Part shown: piece after piece, positions 26,554 through 48,545 of the stretch
Position numbering within the stretch: the stretch's first letter is position 1
How the letters are laid out: every line of letters starts with the position of its first letter
Assembly (NCBI RefSeq): GCF_030646155.1
Contig: NZ_JAUTDN010000016.1
Location: 1 to 64,000, forward strand
Reading direction: 5' to 3'
Source of the DNA: Conexibacter sp. CPCC 205762
Lineage (GTDB): Bacteria > Actinomycetota > Thermoleophilia > Solirubrobacterales > Solirubrobacteraceae
Length of the DNA: 64,000 nucleotides
The notes under the pieces: model-generated
Told to the model about the DNA's origin: nothing
What the model saw: only the letters and a program-made list of their open reading frames with translations
Databases searched by the model: none
Position numbers and translations under genes: made by a program

Positions 26554-26565
26554 CCTGTTTACAAG
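26554..26565 (+). repeat. Left attachment core (att)
   Basis: CCTGTTTACAAG, identical to 48503-48514 inside tRNA-Thr. The similarity extends in tRNA geometry: TCGAACC lies at the same distance to the left as the T-loop does in the intact tRNA. This stretch is therefore probably the decayed 3' half of the original chromosomal tRNA gene, displaced by integration. Confidence 0.75.
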
Positions 26566-26663
26566 GCGGTCTCGCAACCGGGCGGACGTGCCGGATCCGC
26601 CGTGACGACGGGTGATCGCGGGCTCCAGGGGCGCTCTCGCCGGAGCTTGGACCGGGGCTCGAT

Positions 26664-26683
26664 CCGGTCCCGATCGGGACCGG
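26664..26683. repeat. 20-base perfect palindrome near left end
   Basis: CCGGTCCCGATCGGGACCGG is a perfect inverted repeat just downstream (in minus sense) of the HTH gene. It could terminate that gene or bind a protein, and it overlaps the putative integrase arm site. Confidence 0.6.
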
Positions 26684-26695
26684 GAACGGGACCAG
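26675..26695 (+). repeat. Putative integrase arm-type site (left)
   Basis: A 21-base sequence (starts CGGGACC, ends ACGGGACCAG) that recurs with one mismatch at 48368-48388 in the same orientation. Each copy lies about 110-115 bases inside the attachment core, the geometry expected of lambda-type arm sites. Confidence 0.6.
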
Positions 26696-26699
26696 GCGC

Positions 26700-26903
26700 T
26701 CAGGCCGCGCGCGCGGCCGGCGCCGGCCAGTCGATCTGATCGCGCGGGACGCCGACGGCGACCGCCAGCACGGCGCGCGTCGCGTTGCGGGGGGAGCAGC
26801 GGGCGTGCTCGATGTCGTAGATCTGGCGTGAGCTGACGCCGGAGCGACGCGCGAGATCCTCGCGCGAGAGACAGGCTCGTTGGCGGGCGTCTCGCAGCAG
26901 CAC
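26700..26903 (-). CDS. Small XRE-type HTH regulator at the left end of the element
   Basis: 67 residues from GTG 26903. The HTH spans CLSREDLARRSGVSSRQIYDIEHARCSPRNATRAVLAVAVGV, typical of the Cro/C1 (XRE) family in minimal form. TACGCT (26911-26916) sits seven bases before the GTG, so the message is probably leaderless. It is divergent from the lysis and tail operon, and a tandem repeat in the gap (26955-26981) is a likely operator. It may control that operon, separately from the repressor at 44213. Confidence 0.65.
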   Translation of the reverse strand: MLLRDARQRACLSREDLARRSGVSSRQIYDIEHARCSPRNATRAVLAVAVGVPRDQIDWPAPAARAA

Positions 26904-26910
26904 GGTCGCA

Positions 26911-26916
26911 AGCGTA
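26911..26916 (-). promoter_or_regulatory. -10 box for left-end HTH gene
   Basis: TACGCT on the minus strand, seven bases before the GTG start at 26903. Confidence 0.45.
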
Positions 26917-26954
26917 CCTGCTGCGACGGCCAAGATCCTGTTGAAGCGGCCGAT

Positions 26955-27026: not shown

Positions 27027-28199
27027 ATGACGCCCTCCTTCGACGGCCACCACGTCAGCGACGACTGGTTCAAGGTCCTTACGGCAGCCCGCCGTGCCGG
27101 TGTCTCGTTCCGTCTCAACAGCGGTCGCCGGACGCTCGCCGAGCAGCAGCGTCTGTACGACCTCTACCGGGCCGGCGTCGGCAACCTCGCCGCCGTCCCC
27201 TCCCCCACCGCGCCGCACATCCGCGTCGGCCGGCAGGATCACGCGCTCGACGTCGACGTCGCGTTCGGCGGCGGCGTCGCCGTGCTGCGCAGCTGGCTGC
27301 GCGGCCACGGCCTCGCGACCTCGCTGACGGTCGCCGGCGAGCCGTGGCACGTCGAGGCCGACAGCGCCGGCGAGCTGCGCGCAGCCGCCAAGCGGCTCGG
27401 CCGCAAGCCGACGGTGCTCGACCGCCTGCGCGCGCGCCCGCTCACGCGCGGGACCCGCGCGCCCGAGGTGAGAGCGGTGCTGACCTACCTGCGCCGCGCC
27501 AGGCTGATCAGCGGCAGCGTCGACAGCGCGGTCTACGGCGCGACGCTCGAGCGCGCCGTGCGCACCTTTCAGAGACGCGTCGGGCTGGTCGCCGACGGCG
27601 TCGTCGGACCGAAGACCTTCGCGGCGCTGCGGCGCCGCTACGGCTGGCGCGTCTGGAGCAGACGCGCGGCGGCGAAGCCGGCGGCGGGCACAGAGGCGCC
27701 GCCGGCGACGCTGCGCATCTCCGCCACCGGCCTCGACCTGATCGAGCAGTTCGAGGGCTTCTTCGCGAGACCGTACGACGACCCCGCCGGACACGCGACC
27801 GTCGGTTACGGCCACCTCCTGCACCTCGGCCCGGTGACCGCCGCCGACCGCGCCGCCAGCTGGGTCGCGAGACAGCAGACGCCGGGCCAGCTGACCGACG
27901 CCGAGGCGCGTCAGCTGCTCCGGCAACAGCTCGCAGCCGACTACGAGCCCGCCGTCCAGGCGCTCGCCCTGCCGCTGACGCAGGGCCAGCACGACGCGCT
28001 CGTCTCGTTCGTCTACAACGTCGGCACCGGCGCGCTCGCCAGCTCGACCGGCATCGGCAGAGCGCTGCGCGAGCGGCGCTGGGTCGTCGCCGCCGACGAG
28101 CTGCTGCGGTGGGACAAGGCCGGCGTGCCGCCGCAGCCGCTGCCCGGCCTCACGCGCCGCCGCCGCGCCGAGCGCGCGCGCTTCCTGGGGATCGCGTGA
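27027..28199 (+). CDS. Three-domain endolysin (M15 peptidase, peptidoglycan-binding, GH24 lysozyme)
   Basis: 390 residues, no signal peptide. Residues about 1-112 form an M15 D,D-carboxypeptidase/endopeptidase with its zinc and catalytic residues in HIRVGRQDHALDVD and EPWHVE. Residues about 145-202 are a PG_binding_1 domain (AVRTFQRRVGLVADGVVGPKTF). Residues about 232-390 are a phage lysozyme with the E-8-D-5-T triad E243, D252, T258 in FEGFFARPYDDPAGHATVGYG. The protein can cut both peptide and glycan bonds. It heads the late operon and overlaps the holin gene by one base, so it supplies release of the tail particles. Confidence 0.9.
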   Translation: MTPSFDGHHVSDDWFKVLTAARRAGVSFRLNSGRRTLAEQQRLYDLYRAGVGNLAAVPSPTAPHIRVGRQDHALDVDVAFGGGVAVLRSWLRGHGLATSLTVAGEPWHVEADSAGELRAAAKRLGRKPTVLDRLRARPLTRGTRAPEVRAVLTYLRRARLISGSVDSAVYGATLERAVRTFQRRVGLVADGVVGPKTFAALRRRYGWRVWSRRAAAKPAAGTEAPPATLRISATGLDLIEQFEGFFARPYDDPAGHATVGYGHLLHLGPVTAADRAASWVARQQTPGQLTDAEARQLLRQQLAADYEPAVQALALPLTQGQHDALVSFVYNVGTGALASSTGIGRALRERRWVVAADELLRWDKAGVPPQPLPGLTRRRRAERARFLGIA

Positions 28200-28459
28200 T
28201 GCAGTTCGTGCGCGCCTTCCTCGACGACCTCGTGCGGCTCAAGCTGCCGGTCACCGCAGGGGCGGTGGTGACGACCGTGCTCGCGCTTGCGCAGCCGTTC
28301 GGGCTGACGCTCGGCGGTGACGCGACGGCGAAGGTCACCGGCGCGCTCGTCGCCGTCGGCGTCATCTCGCAGTACGTGCAGGACCGCCTGCTGGGCGGCG
28401 TCGTCGTCAAGACCAATCCGGCGACCCAGAGCGCGCCGCCGGCGGAGGTGAGCGAGTAG
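28199..28459 (+). CDS. Holin-like membrane protein
   Basis: 86 residues with two hydrophobic helices (about 15-33 and 43-60: LPVTAGAVVTTVLALAQPF; VTGALVAVGVISQYVQD) and a short polar tail. Small size, two helices and coupling to the endolysin gene (TGATG junction) make a holin the best reading. An in-frame GTG lies one codon upstream. Confidence 0.7.
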   Translation: MQFVRAFLDDLVRLKLPVTAGAVVTTVLALAQPFGLTLGGDATAKVTGALVAVGVISQYVQDRLLGGVVVKTNPATQSAPPAEVSE

Positions 28460-28866
28460 TGGCCGCAACCGACTGGGCGCCGTCGCCCGACTATGTCGCC
28501 GCGCTGATGCACACGCGCACGCGCGGGCGCGACTCGATCGCGGCGACCGCCGCCAGAGAGCTGGGCAGATTCACCGCCAACACGCGCCCGACGCTGACGC
28601 AGGTGCAGAGACTGATCGAGCTGGCGGCCGGCGAGGTCGCGTCCCACTTCCCCGGCCGCTCGCCTTGCACGCCCGACCTCGAGATCGCCGCCGGCGCCGC
28701 CGTCGCCTACCGTGCGGCGCAGCTGGTCGAAGCGTCGCTGGCGCCCGAGCGCACCAACTACCTCGGGAGTGCCCACGAGGCGTACCGCACGCTCGCCGAC
28801 GACGCGATCAGAGCGCTCTCGGCGGCGGTCATCGCAGGCTGCCCGCTCGACGCCGGAGGCAGCTGA
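28459..28866 (+). CDS. Probable tail-completion / connector-type protein
   Basis: 135 helical residues from GTG 28459, which overlaps the previous stop. The core GRFTANTRPTLTQVQRLIELAAGEVASHF, then DLEIAAGAAVAYRAAQLVEASL, resembles the gp6/gp36-like adaptor proteins encoded upstream of sheath genes in myophages (Mu gp36-type). In a headless particle it could cap the tube. The family assignment is tentative. Confidence 0.55.
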   Translation: MAATDWAPSPDYVAALMHTRTRGRDSIAATAARELGRFTANTRPTLTQVQRLIELAAGEVASHFPGRSPCTPDLEIAAGAAVAYRAAQLVEASLAPERTNYLGSAHEAYRTLADDAIRALSAAVIAGCPLDAGGS

Positions 28867-29570
28867 TGGCCGGCAGCCCGCTCGGTCCGTTCGTCACGCC
28901 GTGGGCGCTCAGAAGAGCGGCCCGCGAGCTCTTGCTGGGTTACCACCTCGGCATCTACCTCGACGAGATCGTGCGGCAGCAGACGCCGACCGGCAGCCCC
29001 GTGCTGCGGATCGAGCGGCCCAACGACGTGCTCCTGCGCGAGACCCCGCGCGTGCGCGCCGACGAGCGGCTGCCGGCGCTGGTCGTCGGCTGCCACGGCA
29101 CGCTCGACGACGTCCGCTACCGCGCCGGCGACGGCTGCTATCAGGGCACGTTGAAGCTCGACGTGCACGCGATCACGAGCGCGGCCGACGAGCTCGTCGG
29201 CGGCGAGACCGCCAGCATCCTCGCGCTCGGCGCCGCGACGCTGCTGCTGCATGAGCTGCCGCAGCTGACCGGCTTCCAGGCGCGCTGGCTCGGCGCCGTC
29301 GCGGGTGACCCGACCGGCGACCGCGGCCAGACCGAGGCGCCGCAGCAGAGCATGGGCGTCAACGTCAACGTGCGCGACGAAGCAGAGCGCACGCTGCACG
29401 CCGAGGGCCACGTGCTGGCCGTCTCCGGCGTCCTGCTGTCGGACCTCGGCGGCCCGCTCCCTGCGGCCGTGAGAGATCCGCCGATCGAGGATCCGGCGCT
29501 CGACCTGGAGGACGGGCCGAGCGTCGAGGAGATCGCCCTGACCACCACTCCGTTCGAGGAGATCCCATGA
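28866..29570 (+). CDS. Probable tail terminator-like protein
   Basis: 234 residues from ATG 28866, coupled to the previous gene. The central part is alpha/beta (ALVVGCHGTLDDVRYRAGDGCYQGTLKLDVHAITSA; AATLLLHELPQLTGF). The place directly before the sheath gene is where Mu-like phages encode the tail terminator (gp37/gpU-like), which stops tube growth. The C-terminal acidic extension is unassigned. Sequence evidence alone is weak. Confidence 0.5.
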   Translation: MAGSPLGPFVTPWALRRAARELLLGYHLGIYLDEIVRQQTPTGSPVLRIERPNDVLLRETPRVRADERLPALVVGCHGTLDDVRYRAGDGCYQGTLKLDVHAITSAADELVGGETASILALGAATLLLHELPQLTGFQARWLGAVAGDPTGDRGQTEAPQQSMGVNVNVRDEAERTLHAEGHVLAVSGVLLSDLGGPLPAAVRDPPIEDPALDLEDGPSVEEIALTTTPFEEIP

Positions 29571-29632
29571 GCGAGGCCATGCAGGTGACGCACCTCGAGC
29601 TGTCCGCAACCAACGCAGGAGACGCAATCTGA
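29567..29632 (+). CDS. Tiny ORF coupling terminator and sheath genes
   Basis: ATG at 29567 overlaps the preceding stop (ATGA), and its own TGA overlaps the sheath ATG. It would encode 21 residues, MSEAMQVTHLELSATNAGDA plus Ile. It contains the GGAGA ribosome site of the sheath gene. It is probably a translational relay; whether the peptide matters is unknown. Confidence 0.4.
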   Translation: MSEAMQVTHLELSATNAGDAI

Positions 29633-31056
29633 TGCCGCTGCCCGAAGTGATCGTGCGCCGCGGGGACCGCGGCGCCGCGCCCATCCCGGCCGACGACGTC
29701 TCGACCCGTTTCGAGGTCGTCGTCTGCGACCACGGCCCGATCGACGAGCCGATCGAGTGCCGCTCGTTCACGCAGGTCCGCCAAACCGTCGGTGACCACA
29801 CCGCGACCTCGACGCTGCGCGCGGTCGAGTCCTTCTTCGCCGAGGGCGGCAGCCGCGTCGTGCTCTCGCGCGCTGTGGGTGCGGACGCCAGACCCGCCAG
29901 ACTCGCGCTCAAGAACGGCACCGTCGACGTGCTGACCGTCGAGGCCGCCGGACCCGGCACCTTCTACCACGGCGTCAGAGTCGCGGTCGGCACGGCCGAC
30001 AGCAACAGAGCTCAGAGCATCACGCTGACGCTGAACGGCTCTCCGCTCGTTAGCGGCACGGTCGCCGACGCCGCCGAGGCGGCCGAGCTGATCAACCTCT
30101 CCGGCCACGCGAAGGCGGTCGTCCTCAGAACCGACAGCTGGCCGCTCTCGCCGGTCACCAGCGGCGGCGAGCTCGCCGGCGGCGTCGACGACGCCGGCGT
30201 CGAGCCCGACGACGTCAGAAGAGCGCTCAGAGCGTTCGACGAGGATCTCGGCCCCGGCTCCGTCTGCGCCTCCGGCTGGGACGACTCGGCGGTCTTCGGC
30301 CACCTCGCCGACCATGCCGCGGCCACCAACCGCTTCGCGCGCGGCGATTTCGGTCTCACCACCCCGGTCGAGACGATGACGTCGACCGCGGCGCTGCTCC
30401 GCAGACACCAGAACGCGAGATACCTGCAGCTGTTCGCCGGCTGGCTCAACATCTCGATCGCCGGCGTCACCCTGTCGGTGCCGCCCTCGGGCGTCCACAC
30501 CGGCCGCGAGGCGCTCGCAGACCGCGAGAACAGCGCCGGCCCCGGCCAGCCGGCCTCGTGGACGTTCGGCGAGTACCGCACGCCGACCGGCGTCGCGAAC
30601 CTGTTCACCCGCGGCGAGCGCGAGCAGCTCAACAACGCGGGCGTCACCGTCGTGGTGCAGGACTCGCAGGGCGCGATCTACGCGGAGGACGCGATCACGC
30701 TCGTCGACCCGACGAGATACCCGCAGTACGCCGAGGTCTCGGCGATGCGCGTGACGATGGCGATCCACGCAGCGGCGAAGCAGGCCCTGCGCAAGCGAGT
30801 GATGCAGACGATCGACGGCAAGGGCCACCTGGCCGCGATCACCACCGGCGACATCGTCTCGGTCTGCGCCAACTGGTACACGCGCGGCGCGCTCTTTGGC
30901 GAAACGCCCGACGACGCCTACAGCGCCAGCGTCACGGCCGAGACCGAGCCGGGCAGACGGCCGCGTCTCGTCGGCTACCTCGCGCTGCGCCCGTCGCCGT
31001 CCGCGCACACGGTGGAGCTGACCATCACGCAGGTCGCTCCGAGCGACACGATCTAG
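29632..31056 (+). CDS. Contractile tail sheath protein
   Basis: 474 residues. The N-terminal part (MPLPEVIVRRGDRGAAPIP, then SFTQVRQTVGDHTATSTLRAVESFFAEGGSRVVLSRAVG) and the conserved C-terminal domain (GVANLFTRGEREQLNNAGVTVVV; VSAMRVTMAIHAAAKQALRKRVMQ) match phage_sheath_1-type proteins. The sheath surrounds the tube and contracts to drive it through the target envelope. Length is typical. This gene establishes that the element encodes a contractile (myovirus-type) tail. Confidence 0.87.
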   Translation: MPLPEVIVRRGDRGAAPIPADDVSTRFEVVVCDHGPIDEPIECRSFTQVRQTVGDHTATSTLRAVESFFAEGGSRVVLSRAVGADARPARLALKNGTVDVLTVEAAGPGTFYHGVRVAVGTADSNRAQSITLTLNGSPLVSGTVADAAEAAELINLSGHAKAVVLRTDSWPLSPVTSGGELAGGVDDAGVEPDDVRRALRAFDEDLGPGSVCASGWDDSAVFGHLADHAAATNRFARGDFGLTTPVETMTSTAALLRRHQNARYLQLFAGWLNISIAGVTLSVPPSGVHTGREALADRENSAGPGQPASWTFGEYRTPTGVANLFTRGEREQLNNAGVTVVVQDSQGAIYAEDAITLVDPTRYPQYAEVSAMRVTMAIHAAAKQALRKRVMQTIDGKGHLAAITTGDIVSVCANWYTRGALFGETPDDAYSASVTAETEPGRRPRLVGYLALRPSPSAHTVELTITQVAPSDTI

Positions 31057-31068: not shown

Positions 31069-31503
31069 ATGCCGACCCCCAACATGACCGGCGACTGGCA
31101 GTTCATCGCCACGCTGACCGTCGACGGAGTCAAGCTCGAAGACAACTGGGATGCGATCGAGGGCGGGGACACGACCTCGGCGACGCGCACCTTCCGCGCC
31201 GGCGGCCAGCTCTACGCGGAGTCGATGCCCGGTCCGCCGACGACGGCCGACATCGTCCTCGAGCGCGCCTATCGCGGCTCGATCGACGGCGCGCTCCGCA
31301 CCCAGCTGGCGAACGCGATCGGCAGAGAGGCGAGAGTCACGATCGTCACGCTCGGCGCCGACCACCGGCCGATCAGCGGTACCAGCGAGACGATCACGGG
31401 CGTCCTCAAGGAGGTCACGCGCCCGGACTTCAGATCCGAGAGCGCCGGCGTCGCCCTCTACAAGGTCGTCGTCGCGCCGCACGGCGTCTGGAAGGGCACG
31501 TGA
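31069..31503 (+). CDS. Tail tube protein
   Basis: 144 residues, beta-rich, starting MPTPNMTGDWQFIATLTVDGVKLEDNWDAIEGGDTTS, with TFRAGGQLYAESMPGPPTTADIVLERAYRGSID. It has the size, position (directly after the sheath) and compact beta-barrel look of gp19/XkdM-type tube subunits that stack into the rigid inner tube. AGGAGA lies before the ATG. The GTG of the next gene overlaps its stop. Confidence 0.8.
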   Translation: MPTPNMTGDWQFIATLTVDGVKLEDNWDAIEGGDTTSATRTFRAGGQLYAESMPGPPTTADIVLERAYRGSIDGALRTQLANAIGREARVTIVTLGADHRPISGTSETITGVLKEVTRPDFRSESAGVALYKVVVAPHGVWKGT

Positions 31504-32078
31504 GCACCTCCGACCCGTTCATGACGGACGGCGACGACGCCGTTGACGCGGTCGAGATCGACGAGGCAGCCGCGGCGGGCAGTGATGCCGTCGCGGCCGA
31601 CTCGCCGCTCGAGCGGCTGCGCCGCACCTACGCGGCACGGCGCCGGCAGGCGGAGCTGTTCCTGCCGGTCCCGGGCTGGGGTGATGCGCTCGTCGCGCGG
31701 GTGACGGTCCCCGACCACGACTTCACGCGCAGAATCACCGGCACGCCGGGGACGGTCGACTGGATGGCCGACTTCGTCGCCGAGACCGTCGACGGGCTGT
31801 TCGAGATCGACGGCGTCGACGACGACGGCAGCCCACGGCTGACGGCGATCGAGAGCGAGTCCGGTCCGCTGCGCTTCAACGTCCACTACGCCGACACGGT
31901 CGGGCTGCCGGAGGCACTGTCGGCGCGCGAGGCGGTCCAGTCGGCGTTCACGATCGGCGGCGAGGATTCGCTGCCGGTCATCAACGTGGTCGCGCTCGCC
32001 GAGTTCGCCAACACGATCGAGCGCTGGCTCGGTGACACGTCCCGCGACATCGCCGAGGCGATCGTCCCGGGGCGCTGA
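31500..32078 (+). CDS. Tail assembly chaperone, short form (upstream of -1 frameshift)
   Basis: 192 residues from GTG 31500. It lies between the tube and tape-measure genes, the fixed place of tail assembly chaperones (gpG, gpE-E' or XkdN type). The body contains LERLRRTYAARRRQAELFLPVPGWGDALVARVTVPDHDF and LPVINVVALAEFANTIERWLG. CCCGGGG is followed three bases later by the TGA stop, and the -1 frame continues openly for 64 more codons. Chaperones of this type coat the tape measure during tail assembly. Confidence 0.8.
   Translation: MSTSDPFMTDGDDAVDAVEIDEAAAAGSDAVAADSPLERLRRTYAARRRQAELFLPVPGWGDALVARVTVPDHDFTRRITGTPGTVDWMADFVAETVDGLFEIDGVDDDGSPRLTAIESESGPLRFNVHYADTVGLPEALSAREAVQSAFTIGGEDSLPVINVVALAEFANTIERWLGDTSRDIAEAIVPGR
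32066..32072 (+). promoter_or_regulatory. Programmed -1 frameshift slippery heptamer
   Basis: C CCG GGG in the zero frame fits X XXY YYZ. Both tRNAs can re-pair after a one-base slip back (CCC, GGG). The zero-frame stop TGA follows after one CGC codon. Confidence 0.72.
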
Positions 32079-32266
32079 GCCTCGGCGAGCAGAGTCATGT
32101 GGAGCTTGCGCTGGCACTCGGGCTGGACCGGATCGCCGAGCGACTGGTCGCCGGCGACGCCGTCGAGCGCGTGTTCTGGCGCGAGCGACTCGCCGGGGCT
32201 GATCGCTACGCCGCCAAGCGCGACGAGCGCCTCGCCCACTTCATCGCCCAGCTCATGTGGAGGTAA
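32072..32266 (+). CDS. -1 frame extension of the tail assembly chaperone
   Basis: The -1 frame runs from the slippery site to TAA at 32264-32266 and encodes ALSLGEQSHVELALALGLDR and then IAERLVAGDAVERVFWRERL with a basic, Trp-containing end. This adds 64 residues to give a fusion of about 255. It has no good independent start. It ends seven bases before the tape-measure ATG. In phages the fused form binds the tape measure through this extra domain. Confidence 0.72.
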   Translation, partial: ALSLGEQSHVELALALGLDRIAERLVAGDAVERVFWRERLAGADRYAAKRDERLAHFIAQLMWR

Positions 32267-32272: not shown

Positions 32273-34237
32273 ATGGCGTATCGCAGAGCCCTCGACTACG
32301 AGCCTCTCTTCCCGAGACCCAAGGCGAGACCGCAGCCGCTGATGATGACGGTGCCGACGAACTCGGGGACCGTCGGTGCGAGAGTCGGCGGCAGACAGGT
32401 CGACGTCAACGCCGGCTACACCGGCTCGACGTACACCGGCGCCGGCAACACCGGCACCACCGGAGCGACCAACACGGGCTACGTGCCGGGAGTCTCGGCG
32501 CGCGGATCGGCGGGCACGTCCCTGGGACTCATCATCCCCAGCGCGCAGCCGCGGCGACGCCGCAGCGGGCTCGCGGCCGGCACGCCGCTGCAGGATCTGA
32601 TCTGGCAGCGGCCGGCGGCGTGGGTTCCGCACTACACCGACCCGCTGCCCGCGGCAGCTCCCGCACCGCAGAAGAAGAGCGGCAGCAGCTGGTTCACGCG
32701 CGCGGTCGGAGACACCGTCGGCGGGATCGCCAAGACGGGTGGCGGCATCGCGGACGCCACCACCAGCGCCGCCCGTGGCGGCATCGCCCTCGCCGACGAC
32801 GTCGGCAACACCGCCGCGCACGTCGTCAGCCGCGGCGTCAGCACCGCCTGGAACGCGTCGGGCGTCGTCCGCAACCCGTTTCTGGACGCGGCCGGCTTCG
32901 CCGGCGGCGCGGCGTTCGACGTGGGCGCCTTCACGCTGCGGCCGACCGTGCGAACGCTCTTGGCCGGTCGCGACGTCGCCAGCGACGTCGCGGGCATAGG
33001 CATCCGGGCGCTCGACGACAGCACCCGCGTGGCGCGCACCGTCGCGGGCGTCGGCGTACGCGGCGCGCGCGTCGTCGCCCGCGGCGTCGACGCCCACGTG
33101 AGCGACGTCGCGGACGGCGTCAGCACCGCCCTGCACGGCATCGGCGACGGCATCCAGTACACCGCCAACGCCGCCCAGCACGTGGGGACCGGCGTCGTCA
33201 AGGGTGGTCTGGCGGCCGCCGCCTTCAAGTTCAACACCGCCGCGAGCGTCGTGACGCCGGTGGCACGCACGGCGTGGGGCTTGGCGTCGGCGGGAGCCGA
33301 CGCCGGTTGGGCCGCGACGCAGTGGAGCGCCAACGCCGCACTGAACACCGGACGCGTCGGGATGAGAGCCGTCACCGGGACCGACAAGTTCAGCGAGCTG
33401 CCCGGTGCGCTGTGGGACCAGGCCAAGATCAACTTCGTCTCGGGCGCGATGTTCAACCCCGGAATCGCGGCGCTGAACATGTACCACAACCTCGGCGACC
33501 CGCTGGGGCTCAGAGGGACGATGGAGTCGATCTCCGAACGTGGAGCTTTCGCCGGCCTGCTCAAGAACACGATCGGCGTCGAGCCGACGGGGTTCATGAA
33601 GGAGGCGTTCAAGGTGCTCGACGCCTCGGCGCTCGCCGGCTCGGTCTTCCTCGCGACGGAGTCGACGAACGACTGGGCGAAGGGCGAAGGAAGCTTCGGC
33701 AACATGGTCCGGAACAACGCCATGACCACAGCCGCGGCAGCGAGCTTCGCGATCCCGGAGCTGCGCGCCGGCGGCGTGCTTGCGCGGGTCGCCGGCAGAG
33801 CCGTCCTGAGAGAGACCGAGCTGCTGACCACCGAGGCGGTGCTCCAGACGCTGAGCAACCTCGACGCCGCGGAGAGCCTCGGCAGCAGATACCTGTGGGG
33901 TCCGGAGGACCAACGGGAGCCGATTCCGTGGAATGACATGGCGCTGCGCGCCGCCGGCCTCGGCTACATGGTCCGCGCCCGCGGCGGCCGCGTGCAGAGT
34001 GGTGAGACGACGCTCGTCGGCGAGCGCGGGCCCGAGATCGTGCGGCTGCCAGGCGGCTCGCAGGTGATGCCGGCGCATCGCTCGCGCGAGCTGATGGAGC
34101 GCATGGGGATGGGCGCGGGCGGATTCGGCCCGCAGGCCGACCGCGAGCTGCACATCCACCAGCACCTCGACGGGCGAGAGATCGCGCGCTCGACCCTGCG
34201 CAACTTCGACGACGACGAGCAGTGGGGACGCCTGTGA
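32273..34237 (+). CDS. Tail tape measure protein
   Basis: 654 residues, the longest gene of the tail operon after the chaperone. A Gly/Thr-rich N-terminus is followed by a long Ala/Val/Gly-rich helical region (about 140-370) with quasi-repeats. The C-terminal tail carries the common TMP motif GRVQSGETTLVGERGPEIVRLPGGSQVMPA and HIHQHLDGREIARSTLRNF. By the usual rule of about 1.5 angstrom per residue, the tube would be roughly 100 nm. The next gene starts at a GTG overlapping its stop. Confidence 0.85.
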   Translation: MAYRRALDYEPLFPRPKARPQPLMMTVPTNSGTVGARVGGRQVDVNAGYTGSTYTGAGNTGTTGATNTGYVPGVSARGSAGTSLGLIIPSAQPRRRRSGLAAGTPLQDLIWQRPAAWVPHYTDPLPAAAPAPQKKSGSSWFTRAVGDTVGGIAKTGGGIADATTSAARGGIALADDVGNTAAHVVSRGVSTAWNASGVVRNPFLDAAGFAGGAAFDVGAFTLRPTVRTLLAGRDVASDVAGIGIRALDDSTRVARTVAGVGVRGARVVARGVDAHVSDVADGVSTALHGIGDGIQYTANAAQHVGTGVVKGGLAAAAFKFNTAASVVTPVARTAWGLASAGADAGWAATQWSANAALNTGRVGMRAVTGTDKFSELPGALWDQAKINFVSGAMFNPGIAALNMYHNLGDPLGLRGTMESISERGAFAGLLKNTIGVEPTGFMKEAFKVLDASALAGSVFLATESTNDWAKGEGSFGNMVRNNAMTTAAAASFAIPELRAGGVLARVAGRAVLRETELLTTEAVLQTLSNLDAAESLGSRYLWGPEDQREPIPWNDMALRAAGLGYMVRARGGRVQSGETTLVGERGPEIVRLPGGSQVMPAHRSRELMERMGMGAGGFGPQADRELHIHQHLDGREIARSTLRNFDDDEQWGRL

Positions 34238-41675: not shown

Positions 41676-41677
41676 CG

Positions 41678-41973: not shown

Positions 41974-41977
41974 ACGG

Positions 41978-42223: not shown

Positions 42224-42242
42224 TGACGGAAGGACTGAACCG

Positions 42243-42818
42243 ATGCCCGTGACACCCTCGAGCCGCCTCGGCCTCCATGCCCCCGCGGCCGACGACAGAG
42301 CAGACGTGCCCGGCGACATGCTGAGACTTCGCGATCAGATCGATCTCGTCGCCGCCACGTGCGGACAGGGCGTTCTGGCCGGACGGCCAGCCCCGAGCGT
42401 CGCCGGCCGGCTCTTCGTCGCGCTCGACAGCGGCGAGCTGTTCTACGACGTCGGCACGGAGTGGCGCCTGGTCGCGGTGCAGACGGAGTCTCCGCACATC
42501 GTTGGCGCCCCCGGAGAGCCGCCGTTCTACTCTCGCTATGTCGAATCCGACACGAGCAACATCGTTCGGTTCTGGAAGTCTGGACGACGGGTGTATCTCG
42601 CGGGGCTGGTGCGCGCCAGCGCGCGGCCGTTCGTCTCGGACTATTTCGTCCTGCCCGTCGGCTACCGACCCGCGGCAACGATCACGCGCACGATCAGCAC
42701 CGCCGACGGCGATGGATTCACCCTCACGATCAGCAGCTCAGGGTGGGTGTCCGTGCCCGACACCCTGCCTCACTACCTGACCGCCCTGCTCGACGGCGTC
42801 TGGTTCGACGTCGCCTGA
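42243..42818 (+). CDS. Fibre module paralogue 3 with tip domain
   Basis: 191 residues. The first 85 repeat the module (LGLHAPAADDRADVPGDMLRLRDQIDLVAATCGQG; GRLFVALDSGELFYDVGTEW). About 100 further residues form a beta-rich tip (PPFYSRYVESDTSNIVRFWKSGRRVYLAGLVRAS; FTLTISSSGWVSVPDT). This is the only copy with an apparent receptor-binding end, so the shorter copies may be remnants or stalk-only partners. Confidence 0.62.
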   Translation: MPVTPSSRLGLHAPAADDRADVPGDMLRLRDQIDLVAATCGQGVLAGRPAPSVAGRLFVALDSGELFYDVGTEWRLVAVQTESPHIVGAPGEPPFYSRYVESDTSNIVRFWKSGRRVYLAGLVRASARPFVSDYFVLPVGYRPAATITRTISTADGDGFTLTISSSGWVSVPDTLPHYLTALLDGVWFDVA

Positions 42819-42839: not shown

Positions 42840-43139
42840 GTGGCGATGGCACCACCCGAGGACTATGCGGCGGCGCGCTACGAGGCGCTCAGCGAGCGCA
42901 TCACGCACGTGAAGGCCGGCGCCGACCGGCGGGCCGAGCAGCTCGGCGAGCGGATCGACCGGCTCGCCGATCGGCTCGACGCGAGAGTCGAGCAGCTCGA
43001 CCTGCAGAAGGCCGACCAGGACGATCTCGACAAGGCCTCCAGCCTGCTCGACCGGATCCTGCTGGGCGTGCTCGGCGCGAGCCTCGCGTTCGGCGGCGGG
43101 GCCGTCTGGTTCGTCGTGCAGATCGGAGGAGGACGCTGA
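42840..43139 (+). CDS. XhlA-like coiled-coil protein with C-terminal membrane helix
   Basis: 99 residues from GTG 42840 (ATG at 42846 is an alternative). A coiled coil (KAGADRRAEQLGERIDRLADRLDARVEQLDLQKADQDDLDK) is followed by one membrane helix (RILLGVLGASLAFGGGAVWFVVQ). XhlA of PBSX has this plan and assists the holin. Here it sits at the far end of the operon from the endolysin and holin. Confidence 0.62.
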   Translation: MAMAPPEDYAAARYEALSERITHVKAGADRRAEQLGERIDRLADRLDARVEQLDLQKADQDDLDKASSLLDRILLGVLGASLAFGGGAVWFVVQIGGGR

Positions 43140-43498
43140 TGACGGAGCGACGGATCCGCCGAAGGCTGCGTGCCGCGCGCGCGGCCGCCGACGCGCTCTA
43201 CGCCGACAAGGCGCGCTTCGCGATCGTCTCGCTCGCCGTCTCCGGGCTCGCGCTCGGCGTCGGCGGCGGGGCGCTCGCCTACACCGCCGCGACGAAGGCC
43301 GACCAGGCCGAGCAGATCCAGCGCTCGCGCTACGAGGCGTCGCTGAGATCGTGCGAGTCGCGCAACGCCGACCGCCGCAACATCGCGACAAGAGTGCAGC
43401 CGCGGGCGCCATACACGGTCGCGGACCTGCAGCGCGACTTCGAGCCGATCGCGAGCGACTGCAGGGCCTACGCGCGCGAGCAGGTGCGGGCGCCGTAG
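43139..43498 (+). CDS. Small membrane protein at end of tail operon
   Basis: 119 residues from ATG 43139, overlapping the XhlA-like stop. A basic N-terminus and one membrane helix (about 26-52: FAIVSLAVSGLALGVGGGALAYTAA) precede a polar C-terminal half with two Cys. It is possibly a spanin-like or second lysis protein; function not established. Confidence 0.5.
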   Translation: MTERRIRRRLRAARAAADALYADKARFAIVSLAVSGLALGVGGGALAYTAATKADQAEQIQRSRYEASLRSCESRNADRRNIATRVQPRAPYTVADLQRDFEPIASDCRAYAREQVRAP

Positions 43499-44094: not shown

Positions 44095-44310
44095 ATGAGG
44101 CACGGGGGACTGAGCGACGCCGAGATCGCCGCGTTGACCGCGGCGGTGGCGGTGCTGAGACGTGAGGCAGCGGGGCTGGAGGACGGCTCGCCGACGCGCC
44201 GCGCGCTACTCGCTATCGGATCGAACCTCTTGCGCGCTGCCGGCGAAGCCCGGCAGCGGCAGAGACCGCCTCGTCGAGTGCATCGATCGCGGCTGACCTG
44301 CCGCGGATGA
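44095..44310 (+). CDS. Small hypothetical protein overlapping the repressor gene
   Basis: 71 residues with AAGGAG seven bases upstream and a TTGACA promoter further up. It starts MRHGGLSDAEIAALTAAVAVLRREAAG. Its 3' end overlaps the 3' end of the convergent repressor gene by about 98 bases, so the two transcripts are antisense to each other. The basic C-terminus may be a by-product of the overlap. Confidence 0.45.
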   Translation: MRHGGLSDAEIAALTAAVAVLRREAAGLEDGSPTRRALLAIGSNLLRAAGEARQRQRPPRRVHRSRLTCRG

Positions 44311-44590
44311 AGAGCGCGGGGGCTCTGTCGTCGGGAGCGATCGCGCCGAGCCGGTCGAGGTCGGCCCAGAACCATTCGAACGGCAGCCCGCAGCGCTCGG
44401 CGATCGCGCGCAGCTCCTCCCACGAGGCGCCGCGCAGGCGCGCGCGCTTGCCGGTGATCTCGTCGATCACGGAGCCGCTCTTGCCGATCGCGGCGCCGAG
44501 CTCGTCGCGTGAGAGCTTGGCGTAGGCCTGAGCGGCGCGCACGCGCCGGGCGACCTCCTCGGGCTCAGGGCGGTCGTCGACGGGGGGCAT
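44213..44590 (-). CDS. XRE-family repressor (CI-like)
   Basis: 125 residues. An N-terminal XRE HTH reads VRAAQAYAKLSRDELGAAIGKSGSVIDEITGKRARLRGAS, and a second helical part has ELRAIAERCGLPFEWFWADLDRLG. It is transcribed away from the Cro-like gene at 44669. The tandem palindromes in the gap are its probable operators. It is the likely master repressor of lysogeny. Confidence 0.8.
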   Translation of the reverse strand: MPPVDDRPEPEEVARRVRAAQAYAKLSRDELGAAIGKSGSVIDEITGKRARLRGASWEELRAIAERCGLPFEWFWADLDRLGAIAPDDRAPALFIRGRSAAIDALDEAVSAAAGLRRQRARGSIR

Positions 44591-44668: not shown

Positions 44669-44890
44669 ATGATCATCGTGACGCCACTGAAGCTCGCGAT
44701 CGTCGCCTCGGGCAGGAGCCAGCGCGAGGTCGCGACCGCGGTCGGGATCAGCGAGTTCAAGCTCTCGCGGATCGTCAACCGCCACGTCAGTCCGGACGCC
44801 GCCACGCGCGCGGCGCTCGCGCGCGAACTCGGCAGCAGCGTCGAGGCGCTCTTCGGCGACGCGCGGCGGCGGCTCCCCGCCGCCGCCTGA
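44669..44890 (+). CDS. Cro-like HTH regulator
   Basis: 73 residues from ATG 44669. KLAIVASGRSQREVATAVGISEFKLSRIVNRHVSPDAATRAALARELGSSVEALF is a complete XRE HTH. It is divergent from the repressor and first in the early operon, the arrangement of cro. The longer frame from 44630 would run through the operators and was rejected. Confidence 0.78.
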   Translation: MIIVTPLKLAIVASGRSQREVATAVGISEFKLSRIVNRHVSPDAATRAALARELGSSVEALFGDARRRLPAAA

Positions 44891-44966: not shown

Positions 44967-45194
44967 ATGCAGATCCGGCAACGCACGTCCCTGCGTGCGG
45001 CGCTGCACGGCGCCCTGCGCCTGCTCGCCGGCGACGACGGCCTCGACGCGCTGCGCGAGGCGCACTACGCGTCGGTCCGCGAATGGGCCGTGCGACCGCT
45101 CGTCGACCCCGACGAGATCGCCTTCGACGCCTGGCCGCACCCCGACGCCGCCGACGAGGCGCCGGTCGTCTTCCCGCGACGGAGAGCGGCATGA
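44967..45194 (+). CDS. Small hypothetical early protein
   Basis: 75 residues from ATG 44967 (GGAGGA just upstream; ATG 44955 in frame is a possible earlier start). It starts MQIRQRTSLRAALHGALRLL, with an acidic middle. It overlaps the next gene by four bases. No family recognised. Confidence 0.5.
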   Translation: MQIRQRTSLRAALHGALRLLAGDDGLDALREAHYASVREWAVRPLVDPDEIAFDAWPHPDAADEAPVVFPRRRAA

Positions 45195-46105
45195 GCGACG
45201 GACGCACGGTCTGGTGGCCGAAGGACTCCGCCTGGTGGCGGCGCGAGCACGTCGTCGAGCTGGGCGAGGAGTTCGGTCCCGCCGGCCCTGCCGTGCTCGA
45301 CTGGCTGACCTGCGAGGCGAAGGCGCAGAACGACGGCGGCAGGGTCAAGGCCGGGCTGCGCTCGTGCGCCCGCGGCGCCTTCGTCGAGGCCGACCTCGTC
45401 GATCGCGTGCTGCTGCGCGCTGCCGCACTCGGCGCGCTCGACGACTACGTCCGCGCCGACGGCCGCTTCACCGCCCGCATCTCCGGCTGGGAGCAGGACA
45501 ACGAGCGTGGCCGAGCCGCCTTCCGCAAGGCGCGCCAGCGCGAGCGCGACGGCGCCGTGACCGACCGTGACGTGTCACGTCCCGTCACGCCCGGTCACGC
45601 CGAGGCCCCCACAGGAGAGGACAGGACAGGACAGCAGGAGACCGCTGGCGCGGTCATAGCGGCGCCGGCCGGCGCCGGCGGCTTCGATGAGCACGTGATC
45701 CGCCTCTGCCGGCTGCAGTCCGAGCTCGCCCGCGCCCGCACCAACCAGGCCAGCAGCTCGCGCAGGCTGCTGCCGACGCGCAGATGGCACGTCGCGATGG
45801 ACCGCCTCATGCGGCTCGACGGCTGGACGCCGGAGCAGGTCGAGCACGTCATCCGCTGGGTCGACAGACACAGCTTCTGGGCCCCGAACGTGCTCACCGC
45901 CGAGGCGCTGCGACGCCACTTCGACCGCTTCGCGGCAGCGATCAACGCCGAGCGCAGAGGGCCTCCTCCCCCGGCCGGGCCTGCGGCGATCCACGATCGC
46001 GGCGCCGCCCGCCGCGCCCGCGCCGCCGCCGCCTTCGCCGAGCTTGTGCGCCCGGCCCCCGTCATCGAGCAGCTGGAAGGGAGCGAGAGCCGTGACGTCG
46101 CGTGA
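45191..46105 (+). CDS. Phage replication-initiation (replisome organiser-like) protein
   Basis: 304 residues. The N-terminal 110 residues (TVWWPKDSAWWRREHVVELGEEFGPAGPAVLDWLTCEAKAQ, then ADLVDRVLLRAAALGALDDYV) resemble the winged-helix N-terminus of phage replisome organisers (DUF4373/DnaD-like). The C-terminal part has LLPTRRWHVAMDRLMRLDGWTPEQVEHVIRWV. It is followed by a helicase-loader-like gene, the usual pair for starting replication of a temperate phage genome. Confidence 0.65.
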   Translation: MSDGRTVWWPKDSAWWRREHVVELGEEFGPAGPAVLDWLTCEAKAQNDGGRVKAGLRSCARGAFVEADLVDRVLLRAAALGALDDYVRADGRFTARISGWEQDNERGRAAFRKARQRERDGAVTDRDVSRPVTPGHAEAPTGEDRTGQQETAGAVIAAPAGAGGFDEHVIRLCRLQSELARARTNQASSSRRLLPTRRWHVAMDRLMRLDGWTPEQVEHVIRWVDRHSFWAPNVLTAEALRRHFDRFAAAINAERRGPPPPAGPAAIHDRGAARRARAAAAFAELVRPAPVIEQLEGSESRDVA

Positions 46106-46679
46106 GTGGCAGCTGATCGCGGTGGTGCTGGAGAACTGCTGGAAGGGCGAGTGGGACGAGGCCCGCGCCGCCGCCTACTTCGTGCTGCTGAAGCCGTTCG
46201 CGGCCGCCGACGTCGAACGGGCGCTGCACGTGCTCGTCCGCAACGGCTCGCCGTTCATCCCCGCCGTCGCCGAGATCGTCACGACGATCGAGGAGGCGGA
46301 GCGGGTCGGCGTGCCGACCTGGCCAGAGGCCTTCCGCCAGCTGCGCAGACTGCTGCCGCGGCACTCGCGCGACCACGAGGCCGGCTTCGCCGCGCTCGCG
46401 GCGGTCCACCCGCTGCTGGCGTCGTTCGTCGCCGCCTACGGCTGGCGGCGGCTGGCGCACGAGCCGGTCGAAGACCCCGACTACGGCGGCGCGGTGCTGC
46501 GGCGGCTCGAGCGCTCGTGGCAGGAGCACGTCGAGCGCCAGCAGACGCGCGCCAGCCACGAGCTGGCGTTCGCGACCGTCGAGCGACGGCGGCTCGCCGG
46601 CCCGCGCAAGCTCGACGCGGCGTCGCTGCTGCCGGCGCCGCCGGAGCGGCTGCCGCTGCCGCCGGAGCAAGCGGCATGA
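46092..46679 (+). CDS. Helicase-loader-like protein
   Basis: 195 residues from GTG 46092, overlapping the previous gene by 14 bases. The N-terminal half (EWQLIAVVLENCWKGEWDEARAAAYFVLLKPFAAADVERALHVLV, then FIPAVAEIV) matches the small helical pattern of G40P-type phage loaders and inhibitors. No Walker motif is present, as expected for that class. Its pairing with the upstream organiser supports a replication role. Confidence 0.6.
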   Translation: MTSREWQLIAVVLENCWKGEWDEARAAAYFVLLKPFAAADVERALHVLVRNGSPFIPAVAEIVTTIEEAERVGVPTWPEAFRQLRRLLPRHSRDHEAGFAALAAVHPLLASFVAAYGWRRLAHEPVEDPDYGGAVLRRLERSWQEHVERQQTRASHELAFATVERRRLAGPRKLDAASLLPAPPERLPLPPEQAA

Positions 46680-47044
46680 GCGCCGCCTCGCAGCCGACCG
46701 GCGCGCTCGACGGCGAGCTGGCGGAGGCGATCGCGCGGCGCGTCGCGGAACTGGTCGCCCCGCGCCCGCCGGCGCCGCTGCTGACGGCCGAACAGGTCGC
46801 CGCGATGCTGCAGGTGAGAGCCGAGTGGGTCTACGAGCATGCCGCCGAGCTGGGCGCGCTGCGACTCGGCGGCGGCGCCCGCGGCCGGCTGCGCTTCGAC
46901 GCCGAGCAGGTGCGCGAGCGACTGCGCGGACCGGCCGCCGCAGCCGATCGCCCCGCGCCCGCGGCCGGGCCGACCGCACGCCCGCGGCGCCGCAGACCAC
47001 GGACCGGCGAGACGCCGCTGCTGCGCGTCGGCCCCAAACGATGA
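46676..47044 (+). CDS. Excisionase-like HTH protein
   Basis: 122 residues. LLTAEQVAAMLQVRAEWVYEHAAELGALRLGGGARGRLRFDAEQVRERL (about 35-84) is the MerR-like winged HTH of the excisionase/helix_turn_helix_17 family; the tail is Pro/Arg-rich. It lies 12 bases before the integrase gene, so a role in excision is likely. Confidence 0.75.
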   Translation: MSAASQPTGALDGELAEAIARRVAELVAPRPPAPLLTAEQVAAMLQVRAEWVYEHAAELGALRLGGGARGRLRFDAEQVRERLRGPAAAADRPAPAAGPTARPRRRRPRTGETPLLRVGPKR

Positions 47045-47056
47045 GGAGGAGGGCAG

Positions 47057-48472
47057 ATGCCGCGCACACCGACAGGTGAGGCGCTCGCCTACGAGCGCGC
47101 CGACGGCGGGGTCACCTGGTACGCGCGCTTCCGCGCCGAGGGCAGACGCCGCAGAGTCCGGCTCGGAACCGACCACGAGGGCTGGAACGAGACGCGCGCG
47201 GAGAACGCGGTCGCCGAGCTGGTCGACCAGGTCCGCCGCGGCACCTGGCGGCCGCCACCGGCGCGCACCGCCACCGCCGCCGCCTCGGCCGACCCGACCT
47301 TCCACGAGTTCGCCTCCGGCTGGTTCGCCGGCAAGGCGCGCGGGCTGGCGGCGCGCACGGTCGAGGACTACCAGTGGCGGCTGTCCAACCACCTGCTGCC
47401 GCACTTCAAGGACCACTGCCTGTCGGAGATCGACGTGCGCGCCGTCGACGGCTACCGCGCGGCGAAGCTGGCCGAGCGCGAGGCAGCCCGCGCCGCCGGC
47501 CTGCGCGGGCTCTCCAACGACAGCGTCAACGCGACGATCGCGCTGCTGGCGCAGATCCTCGACGTCGCCGCCGAGCACAAGCTGGCGGTCGAGCGGCCGA
47601 ACCCGGCGAAGGGGCGCCGGCGGCGACTGAAGACGCAGCGCGGGCGCCGCAGCTTCCTCGAGCCCGACCAGGCGGCCGCGCTGCTCGACGCCGCCGGCCG
47701 GCTCGACGCCGCCGGCGCGCTCAGCTGGGAGCAGGTGCTGGAGATCCGCGCCGCGAGCGCGTCGAACGTCGCGCTGGCGACGCGCTTCGGCGTCAGCGAC
47801 TCGCTCGTCTCGCGGATCCGCCGCGGCCTCGTCTGGCGCACCCCGGCGAGCGCGCCGGCGCGCCGAGCGCTGATCGCGACGCTGCTGCTGGCGGGACCGC
47901 GCGTCGCCGAGCTGTGCGCGCTCGACGTGCGCGACGTCGACCTGCCCAACCGCCGCCTGCTGATCGCCGGCTCCAAGAGCGACGCGGCCCGCCGCCAGGT
48001 CGTCCTCAGCGACCTGCTGCTGGAGGAGCTGACCGTCCAGCTGGCCCGCTGCGGCCCCGACGGCCCACTCTTCCCCAACACGCGCGGCGCGCGCTACACC
48101 CCCTCCGGCGTCCGCACGGCGGTGCTGACGCCGGCGGCGGAGCTGGCCGCCCGCACGCTGCCGGGCCTGCCGGCGGTGACGCCGCACACGCTGCGACGGA
48201 CCTTTATCTCGCTGCTGCTGGCCGGCGGCGCCGACGTCCCGTGGGTGATGGCGCAGGTCGGCCACACCGACCCGAAGGTGACGCTGCAGATCTACGCACA
48301 GGTGATCCAGTCGCGTCAGCGCGATTACGGCGCGCGCGTCGACCGCATGATCGCGGGCCGCGGCGAGCGGGACCAGGAACGGGACCAGTCCGCCATCCCG
48401 TTCCTGCCACGGCTGGCACCGGACGACCCCGCAACGACCGCGATCACCCTCGTGGCGGGCGATCCGGCGTGA
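47057..48472 (+). CDS. Tyrosine recombinase / integrase with internal HTH insertion
   Basis: 471 residues. There is an N-terminal arm-binding-like segment (about 8-65) and a core-binding SAM-like domain (about 80-180). The catalytic domain shows R282 (GPRVAELCALD), the H377-R380 pair (HTLRRTF), H403 (VGHTD) and Y413 (IYAQ). Residues about 222-262 insert a resolvase-type HTH (LSWEQVLEIRAASASNVALATRFGVSDSLVSRIRRGLVW) just before the catalytic Arg region. The stop lies one base before the tRNA-Thr that serves as the integration site. Confidence 0.9.
   Translation: MPRTPTGEALAYERADGGVTWYARFRAEGRRRRVRLGTDHEGWNETRAENAVAELVDQVRRGTWRPPPARTATAAASADPTFHEFASGWFAGKARGLAARTVEDYQWRLSNHLLPHFKDHCLSEIDVRAVDGYRAAKLAEREAARAAGLRGLSNDSVNATIALLAQILDVAAEHKLAVERPNPAKGRRRRLKTQRGRRSFLEPDQAAALLDAAGRLDAAGALSWEQVLEIRAASASNVALATRFGVSDSLVSRIRRGLVWRTPASAPARRALIATLLLAGPRVAELCALDVRDVDLPNRRLLIAGSKSDAARRQVVLSDLLLEELTVQLARCGPDGPLFPNTRGARYTPSGVRTAVLTPAAELAARTLPGLPAVTPHTLRRTFISLLLAGGADVPWVMAQVGHTDPKVTLQIYAQVIQSRQRDYGARVDRMIAGRGERDQERDQSAIPFLPRLAPDDPATTAITLVAGDPA
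48368..48388 (+). repeat. Putative integrase arm-type site (right)
   Basis: 21-base copy of 26675-26695 with one mismatch, inside the 3' end of the integrase gene and 114 bases from the attachment core. Confidence 0.6.
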
Positions 48473-48473
48473 A

Positions 48474-48545
48474 GCCCGAAAGGGGACTCGAACCCCTGAC
48501 CCCCTGTTTACAAGACAGGTGCTCTACCAGCTGAGCTATTCGGGC
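48474..48545 (-). tRNA. tRNA-Thr (anticodon UGU)
   Basis: 72 bases forming a full cloverleaf on the minus strand. The acceptor stem is GCCCGAA paired with TTCGGGC, the D-arm AGCTCAGCTGGTAGAGC, the anticodon stem CCTGT/ACAGG with loop CTTGTAA (anticodon TGT), and the T-arm AGGGGTTCGAATCCCCT. No CCA is encoded. The element's integrase gene ends one base away, and the attachment core lies in the anticodon arm. Confidence 0.95.
48503..48514 (+). repeat. Right attachment core (att) within tRNA-Thr
   Basis: CCTGTTTACAAG, identical to 26554-26565. The element restores the 3' half of the tRNA, so the gene stays functional after integration. Confidence 0.75.

What the first reader, a model, noticed from the sequence alone, without database searches (positions are those of the whole stretch)
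26554..48514. A headless, integrative contractile-tail element (mobile tailocin) in an actinobacterium
The element has every gene needed for a contractile injection particle in PBSX-like order (sheath, tube, frameshifted chaperone, tape measure, LysM, hub, spike, gp25, gpJ, gpI, fibres) plus its own lysis genes, repressor switch, excisionase-like protein and integrase with att sites. No terminase, portal, protease or capsid gene appears in the roughly 22 kb. Most described tailocins are fixed chromosomal loci without integrases; one that can apparently still integrate and excise would be a distinct kind of system. The alternative is a myophage that lost its head module.
Basis: partly seen in the sequence, partly recalled or inferred. 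Interest (0 to 1): 0.92.

Follow-up and report, generated by a model that had tools for sequence, protein, structure and literature searches.

The report
Headless phage-tail weapon with integrase
A soil actinobacterium carries genes for a phage-like contractile tail without the virus head; the element sits in a tRNA gene, and the same headless element, including its integration genes, is found in two related species, so it looks like an inherited weapon rather than a broken virus.

Summary
Window 26554-48514 is a 22-kb element in tRNA-Thr(TGT) of a Conexibacter (Thermoleophilia). It encodes a contractile tail, lysis genes, a repressor pair, DnaD-like and P-like replication genes, an excisionase-like protein and an integrase, and no head gene was found. 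It is not a one-off deletion: two other Conexibacter species carry the same headless element at the same tRNA (32 of 32 and 28 of 32 protein queries match). All eight more distant relatives that I opened far enough (8 of 8) have head genes upstream of the shared neck gene. The slippery site of the tail chaperone, the integrase, the inner att block and arm-like repeats are conserved.

"Mobile" is only partly supported. The carriers group together and the element mostly follows the species order, which suggests one acquisition followed by inheritance. The displaced tRNA half has decayed, so excision should break the only tRNA-Thr(UGU) seen in G085 and G086, and perhaps here too.

Best reading: an R-type tailocin that kept its phage early region; Int/Xis/Rep may serve induction in a doomed cell rather than spread. 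Closest published case: rhizoviticin (F-type, truncated integrase). New variant of a known kind; no particles or excision were shown.

The parts
26538..26569 (.). Distal att block (minus strand CCGCCTTGTAAACAGG...GGTTCGAG); contains the 12-bp repeat 26554-26565
   Evidence: fully conserved columns 10/10, 6/10, 8/10 in the 30 nt from CTTGTAAACAG against 0-5 of 10 outside, 3 copies
26676..26696 (+). Arm-like repeat GGGACCGGGAACGGGACCAGG, far side
   Evidence: two units here; G085 and G086 have one exact unit plus a degenerate one at this end
26700..26933 (-). Small HTH regulator
   Evidence: PF13560 6.1e-10
27027..28199 (+). Endolysin (phage lysozyme with peptidoglycan-binding domain)
   Evidence: PF00959 3e-33, PF01471 4.6e-13
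28199..28459 (+). Putative holin
   Evidence: position and hydrophobic stretch by eye; no family hit
28459..28866 (+). p135: neck (head-side) protein retained
   Evidence: homologues lie between capsid and tail genes in headed relatives; fold search inconclusive
28866..29570 (+). p235: probable tail terminator / collar
   Evidence: low-confidence model (pLDDT 58.9); five best PDB hits are neck, tail or cap structures incl. monocin cap, pyocin R2 collar further down; none at E<=0.001
29632..31056 (+). Tail sheath
   Evidence: phrog_23 1.1e-17; solved sheaths to 1.6e-10
31069..31503 (+). Tail tube
   Evidence: phrog_5102 7.9e-8
31500..32266 (+). Tail assembly chaperone with -1 frameshift extension (slippery 32066-32072)
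   Evidence: same heptamer in 3 of 3 copies
32273..34237 (+). Tape measure
   Evidence: phrog_1538 0.0024, position
34234..35085 (+). LysM-like baseplate protein
   Evidence: homologues at the same place in G177, G181 and L019; LysM label by eye
35082..36518 (+). Hub
   Evidence: tblastn to G177 1.3e-25 and G172 5e-23
36515..37111 (+). Spike-like protein
   Evidence: position; matches in G085 and G086 only
37116..37430 (+). gp25-like baseplate wedge
   Evidence: phrog_5026 2.7e-4
37433..38917 (+). Baseplate J
   Evidence: PF04865 5.2e-16
38921..42818 (+). Collagen-like fibre, 71-aa protein, LamG-like protein, gpI-like protein (40317-41675), three related small fibre proteins
   Evidence: LamG-like is the most diverged gene compared
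42840..43498 (+). Two small membrane-like proteins
   Evidence: homologues in G085, not in G086; no family hit
44213..44590 (-). Repressor-like HTH
   Evidence: phrog_2328 5.8e-7
44669..44890 (+). Divergent Cro-like HTH
   Evidence: PF01381 3.2e-5
45191..46105 (+). DnaD-like replication initiator / helicase loader
   Evidence: phrog_2514 2.9e-11
46092..46679 (+). P-like helicase loader
   Evidence: phrog_109 3.2e-4, weak
46676..47044 (+). Excisionase-like HTH
   Evidence: phrog_66 3.8e-4; PF12728 3e-4, below its cut-off
47057..48472 (+). Tyrosine integrase
   Evidence: phrog_1 3.7e-60; PF00589 3.7e-20; 84% and 76% identical in G085 and G086
48369..48388 (+). Arm-like repeat GGGACCAGGAACGGGACCAG, near side, inside the end of int
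   Evidence: two units in 3 of 3 copies
48473..48545 (-). tRNA-Thr(TGT), near att site
   Evidence: ARAGORN, Rfam

Best explanation
This is an R-type (contractile) tailocin of a Conexibacter clade. It probably arose once from a headed temperate myophage that had integrated in tRNA-Thr(TGT) and then lost its head module and Neck1 gene; the lysis genes now stand upstream of the neck gene, where relatives have the head. It kept the phage early region. Shown here: gene content, no head gene found, the same form in three species, conserved frameshift site and att architecture. Inferred mechanism: a divergent HTH pair holds it silent. On induction Xis/Int excise it. Circularisation puts the early operon (rep, loader, xis, int) about 0.5 kb upstream of the lysin-holin-tail operon, and the DnaD/P-like proteins may amplify the circle. 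Tails assemble with the frameshifted chaperone, are capped by p235 and are released by lysis to kill relatives chosen by the variable fibres. Since the producer dies, the broken tRNA left by excision costs nothing there, while in uninduced cells it keeps the element fixed.
For: Same headless gene set and order in three species. 8 of 8 opened relatives (G172, G177, G178, G181, G237, G267, L019, L097) have portal, terminase and/or capsid genes upstream of the neck gene. Slippery heptamer in 3 of 3. Third-position excess of differences in int (47/41/108) and rep (41/36/85); NG86 dN/dS for int 0.29-0.42 and rep 0.31-0.34 against 0.06-0.43 for four flanking host genes. Inner att block and arm-like repeats conserved. 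Carriers group together. tRNA-Thr(TGT) found once per genome; five of six virtual excision joins give no tRNA. In rhizoviticin five early-region genes are needed for tail-gene expression (PMC10811719; passages and section 22).
Against: No expression, particle, killing or excision data. Many structural genes have NG86 dN/dS of 0.5-0.99 (the method is biased at this GC), and p135 shows hardly any third-position excess (38/30/40). The no-stop test is weak for most genes: neutral runs stay open in 33-38 of 300 for int, 34-48 for rep, 56-73 for p135, 142-172 for xis and 126-143 for gp25. Element genes are mostly more diverged than their host neighbours at synonymous sites too (W-G085 dS 0.25-0.70 against 0.26-0.33), which could mean transfer. 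In the window copy, excision at the anticodon still leaves a weak 76-nt tRNA-Thr by ARAGORN. Only three copies from seven genus genomes. The excise-amplify step is inference.
Confidence: 0.62

Rival explanations
1. An actively mobile tailocin: the element still excises, circularises and transfers between Conexibacter strains (by transformation or in another phage's head) and reintegrates at tRNA-Thr.
For: Constrained integrase, conserved att block and arm-like repeats; empty intact tRNA-Thr beside the same left-hand neighbours in G081, G082 and G083; higher synonymous divergence than host neighbours; the element's orientation relative to the flanks differs between W and G085.
Against: Carriers group together; 13 of 19 element genes have W-G085 closest, none W-G086; far tRNA half decayed; the orientation flip includes the tRNA itself, and a tRNA-only flip occurs in G081.
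Confidence: 0.15
2. A tail-carrying satellite: it replicates as a circle and attaches its own tail to heads of another phage, using the retained neck protein p135.
For: Retained neck gene p135, replication genes, int/xis.
Against: No Phage_capsid, Phage_portal or phrog_38 match in 7 genus genomes and only 19-20 bits for phrog_2 in 5 of 7, though these families miss many heads; Neck1 not found; no packaging gene found.
Confidence: 0.05
3. A defective prophage that merely lost its head and has no function.
For: Some tail genes evolve fast; head loss is the simplest origin; p135 shows little codon bias in its differences.
Against: Open frames and an identical frameshift site across three species; a neutrally drifting sheath would stay open in only 9 of 300 (G085) and 1 of 300 (G086) simulations; conserved synteny.
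Confidence: 0.12
4. An extracellular contractile injection system (eCIS) carrying effectors.
For: The sheath matches solved contractile sheaths of several depositions.
Against: No AAA+ ATPase among the Pfam hits of 30 proteins; phage-type endolysin, repressor, replication and integrase genes; relatives are headed prophages.
Confidence: 0.03

Closest known systems
Rhizoviticin locus of A. vitis VAR03-1 (PMC10811719; passages and section 22 read)
   Same: 22.7-kb headless prophage-like locus beside a tRNA gene, early region with replication genes retained, lysis genes; the authors see a transition from prophage to tailocin.
   Different: F-type (flexible) tail, integrase truncated, no att duplication detected, alphaproteobacterial. 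Here contractile, integrase intact and constrained, att sites conserved across three species, Thermoleophilia.
R-type tailocins such as R-pyocins and diffocins (recalled)
   Same: Headless contractile tail with lysis genes and variable fibres.
   Different: As recalled, fixed loci without integrase or replication genes.
Pf-5 prophage 01 (PMC2647930) and Marinomonas MEDPRO2 (PMC10870725), passages only
   Same: Headless tail loci; Pf-5 prophage 01 with lysis genes, MEDPRO2 with holin-like genes.
   Different: Pf-5 prophage 01 lacks integrase and is likened to F-pyocins; MEDPRO2 has no replication or capsid homologues.
PBSX of Bacillus subtilis (recalled)
   Same: Tail gene order; DnaD/DnaC-like early genes.
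   Different: PBSX makes heads that package host DNA; no integrase.
'Grounded' prophages (PMC6379469, abstract and passages)
   Same: Prophage fixed by change in att or recombinase.
   Different: Here recombinase and inner att are conserved; what decayed is the host tRNA half.
Headed myo-prophages G172, G177, G178, G181, G237, G267 and IMG/VR contigs L019, L097
   Same: Homologous sheath and p135 neck gene; other tail genes match in part.
   Different: They carry head genes.

Membership tests
R-type tailocin | Contractile tail gene set | tested here: met
   several members named by synteny only
R-type tailocin | No head, portal or terminase genes in the locus | tested here: met
R-type tailocin | Own lysis genes | tested here: met
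   endolysin; holin by position only
R-type tailocin | Headless state shared by lineages, not a one-off deletion | tested here: met
   3 of 7 genus genomes
R-type tailocin | Particles that kill related strains | not testable with these tools
   needs bench work
R-type tailocin | Locus without integrase (usual state, recalled, not strictly defining) | tested here: not met
   intact integrase
Rhizoviticin-like transitional tailocin | Early region with replication genes plus headless tail region | tested here: met
   PMC10811719
Rhizoviticin-like transitional tailocin | Flexible non-contractile tail | tested here: not met
   sheath present
Complete temperate myophage | Terminase, portal, capsid | tested here: not met
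   locus; genus genomes:
Phage satellite (PICI-like) | Dependence on a helper phage and packaging in its heads | not testable with these tools
   no helper head genes seen with four families in 7 genus genomes
Mobile element | Current excision and transfer | tested here: inconclusive
   int/att conserved but mostly vertical pattern and decayed tRNA half
eCIS | AAA+ ATPase, no phage lysis or integration genes (recalled) | tested here: not met

The most novel reading that the evidence does not exclude
Integration genes repurposed as a suicide switch: the headless element keeps Int/Xis, att and replication genes not to spread but because excision joins the early to the late operon and amplifies it; and because excision destroys the cell's only tRNA-Thr(UGU), the weapon can be fired only by a dying cell and is otherwise locked in the lineage.
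Probability: 0.22. Interest if true: 0.82.

Novelty: new variant of a known kind. Interest (0 to 1): 0.6.

Why it matters
It looks like an intermediate between prophage and tailocin that has been kept through the divergence of three species rather than caught mid-decay. It gives a direct way to ask why a headless killer would keep recombination and replication genes. At least one carrier is a named isolate (Conexibacter sp. CPCC 206217), so induction, excision and killing can be tested. Searches of the open-licence paper library for Conexibacter with prophage (57) and for tailocin with Actinobacteria (58) or Solirubrobacterales (116) listed no report of it.

Tried and rejected
Fold searches of p135 against the PDB and BFVD gave nothing firm, so its neck role rests on its place in headed relatives. 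I first took the short C-terminus of p135 in the three headless copies as a mark of head loss: L019, L097 and G178 share an extension ending in RW or W, but headed G177 and G172 lack it and G181 ends differently, so that is 3 of 6 and not a marker. Profile searches of p135 and p235 against solved-structure sequences gave nothing useful. NCBIfam gave one weak HTH hit. PADLOC found nothing among 10 proteins. Promoter/terminator scan of 43400-48600 found none. IMG/VR scans with the two replication proteins found no relatives and the phage records no match for the DnaD-like one, so the origin of the early region is unknown. The att crossover could lie in the anticodon or in the T-loop (the far block is conserved up to GGTTCGAG); I could not decide. 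That G081 lost the element was dropped: RpoB/RpoC plus one short protein put it outside the carriers, although the local flank tree leaves its place unresolved (53). Family searches for heads in the genus are narrow: phrog_38 found G178 but missed headed G177, G181 and G267, whose terminases match phrog_9 or phrog_19179. Not opened: the weak sheath hits G104, G251, G254, G345, G392, G440 and the second G172 hit; G179's contig ends at the sheath.
Full report
Setting. The window lies on a 101.9-kb contig of a 6.1-Mb draft genome of 116 contigs, 91% complete. G086 is closed at 6,359,369 bases; I recall this as C. woesei DSM 14684 but did not check it.

Anatomy. Between a 12-bp repeat at 26554 and its copy in tRNA-Thr(TGT) lie about 32 predicted genes. 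From the left: a small HTH gene on the minus strand, endolysin, putative holin, p135, p235, sheath, tube, chaperone with frameshift, tape measure, LysM-like, hub, spike, gp25, gpJ, fibre proteins with a gpI-like member; then a divergent HTH pair, a DnaD-like and a P-like replication protein, an excisionase-like HTH and a tyrosine integrase ending next to the tRNA. The chaperone has an X XXY YYZ heptamer (C CCG GGG) in frame at 32066-32072 and the -1 frame is open from 32036 to 32266; the heptamer is the same in all three copies. p235 has a low-confidence model (mean pLDDT 58.9); its five best structural matches are neck, tail or cap structures, none at E<=0.001.

No head. PHROG scans of 33 open frames and Pfam scans of 30 give no head gene; two lysozyme-type families filed under 'head and packaging' match the endolysin. 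As a control the same profiles find head genes in relatives: terminase 1.1e-95, portal, maturation protease and major head protein in G178; terminase and/or portal and/or major head protein in G177, G181, G267, G237; portal and major head protein in G172; major head protein and Neck1 in IMG/VR contigs L019 and L097, plus portal and protease in L097. Eighteen such head or neck proteins searched by tblastn give nothing below E 0.2 in the three Conexibacter elements. In the seven genus genomes held, PF05065 and PF04860 match none, phrog_38 none, phrog_2 only 19-20 bits in five. These families do not cover all heads: phrog_38 missed three headed relatives in the same search.

Relatives. A sheath search of 232 genomes of the order matched 9, three of them among the seven of the genus: this one, G085 (71%) and G086 (63%). 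Of 32 protein queries from the element, 32 match in G085 and 28 in G086, in the same order apart from repeated fibre matches. The three small fibre paralogues match one place, the tape measure only over its last 90 or so residues, and the two membrane-like proteins, the collagen-like and the 71-aa protein are missing in G086. Gene calls show no head-like genes there. A class-wide draw of 399 genomes matched 14; two new loci were opened and are headed. The nearest headed relatives are L019 (48% sheath identity) and L097 (43%). There p135 follows the capsid gene and a short gene, and is followed by Neck1 and p235. In the three Conexibacter copies the lysis genes stand upstream of p135 and Neck1 was not found.

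Selection. Frames are open in all three copies for the genes compared. Integrase differences against G085 fall 47/41/108 by codon position and the DnaD-like gene 41/36/85, as expected under protein-level constraint; p135 shows little bias (38/30/40). A neutral simulation would leave sheath open in only 9 and 1 of 300 runs, but is uninformative or weak for the other six genes tested. The LamG-like gene is the most diverged of those compared (39% identity).

Attachment. In all three copies the tRNA is intact and the far side carries a conserved block around CTTGTAAACAGG and GGTTCGAG, while sequence outside is not conserved. GGGACC-type repeats occur at both ends: two units on the integrase side in 3 of 3; on the far side two in the window copy and one exact plus a degenerate one in the others; a few strays lie elsewhere. 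G081, G082 and G083 have an intact tRNA-Thr beside the same left-hand neighbours and no element; only in G081 was the right-hand neighbour on the same piece, 1.4 kb from the left one. The host half displaced by integration has decayed: joining the flanks in silico gives no tRNA by ARAGORN in five of six cases; the anticodon join in the window copy still gives a weak 76-nt tRNA-Thr. A pattern for this tRNA finds one perfect match in each of six genomes and none in G084; the other matches differ in the anticodon.

History. RpoB, RpoC and a short neighbouring protein separate the three carriers from G081, G083 and G084 (UFBoot 96) and put this genome beside G085 (81) (G082 had no RpoB match and G084 is partial). 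Seven flank proteins also join this genome to G085 (100) but leave G081 unresolved. Among 19 element genes with three copies, 13 have the window and G085 closest, five G085 and G086, one is a tie, none the window and G086; synonymous divergence of the element is mostly somewhat above that of its neighbours. One acquisition and descent explains this best, with some exchange possible. One oddity remains: the tRNA with its element is inverted between the same flanking genes in the window compared with G085 and G086, and the tRNA alone in G081 compared with G082 and G083.

Mechanism. That it is a tailocin is inferred from content and conservation. Why keep integrase, excisionase and replication genes? 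Circularisation would bring the early operon to within about 0.5 kb of the lysin-holin-tail operon (with the small HTH gene between, on the other strand), and replication would raise copy number. In rhizoviticin, deletion of five early-region genes lowers tail and lysis transcripts (section 22 of PMC10811719). This is a hypothesis; occasional mobility is the main rival.

Novelty. Rhizoviticin already shows a headless prophage-derived tailocin with replication genes and an integrase remnant. New here are the contractile type, an intact and constrained recombination system, the same element in three species, and the bacterial class. Searches for Conexibacter with prophage (57), tailocin with Actinobacteria (58) or Solirubrobacterales (116), tailocin with integrase and mobile (56), and headless with integrase and att terms (117) showed no such report in their listings; of the papers listed in my searches I looked inside PMC10870725, PMC10811719, PMC6379469, PMC12090994 and PMC2647930 only, in passages, plus one section of PMC10811719.

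Changes after checking. I opened G172 further, withdrew the p135 tail as a marker of head loss, corrected coordinates of the att block and repeats, and stated the limits of the neutral and family tests.

Noticed in passing
window 26500-48600; G085:C1:534.1-557.7k; G081:C2:469.7k: tRNA-Thr(TGT) together with the element is inverted between the same flanking genes in the window versus G085 and G086; in G081 the tRNA alone is inverted versus G082 and G083.
   Followed up: partly
window 48473-48545 and homologues: The acceptor stem differs between carriers (GCCCGAR) and empty genomes (GCCGGAR), as if the host half had adjusted to a 3' end brought by the element.
   Followed up: no
G086:C1:1840098-1843960: Two tandem hub-like genes in G086.
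   Followed up: no
G086:C1:1846357-1850253; G085:C1:540834-543094: The fibre region is rebuilt: one 1298-aa protein in G086, an extra collagen-like and a 527-aa protein in G085.
   Followed up: no
window 20809-22008: Two 300-nt copies, 81% identical, 900 bases apart, in neighbouring related genes.
   Followed up: no
window 7170-7315 (-) and 60372-60562 (-): c-di-AMP and cobalamin riboswitches.
   Followed up: no
L029, L032, L034, L104, L121: Headed relatives with homologous tails have different major head families (phrog_267, 1650, 283, 212, 10), so head modules seem to be exchanged on this tail lineage.
   Followed up: partly
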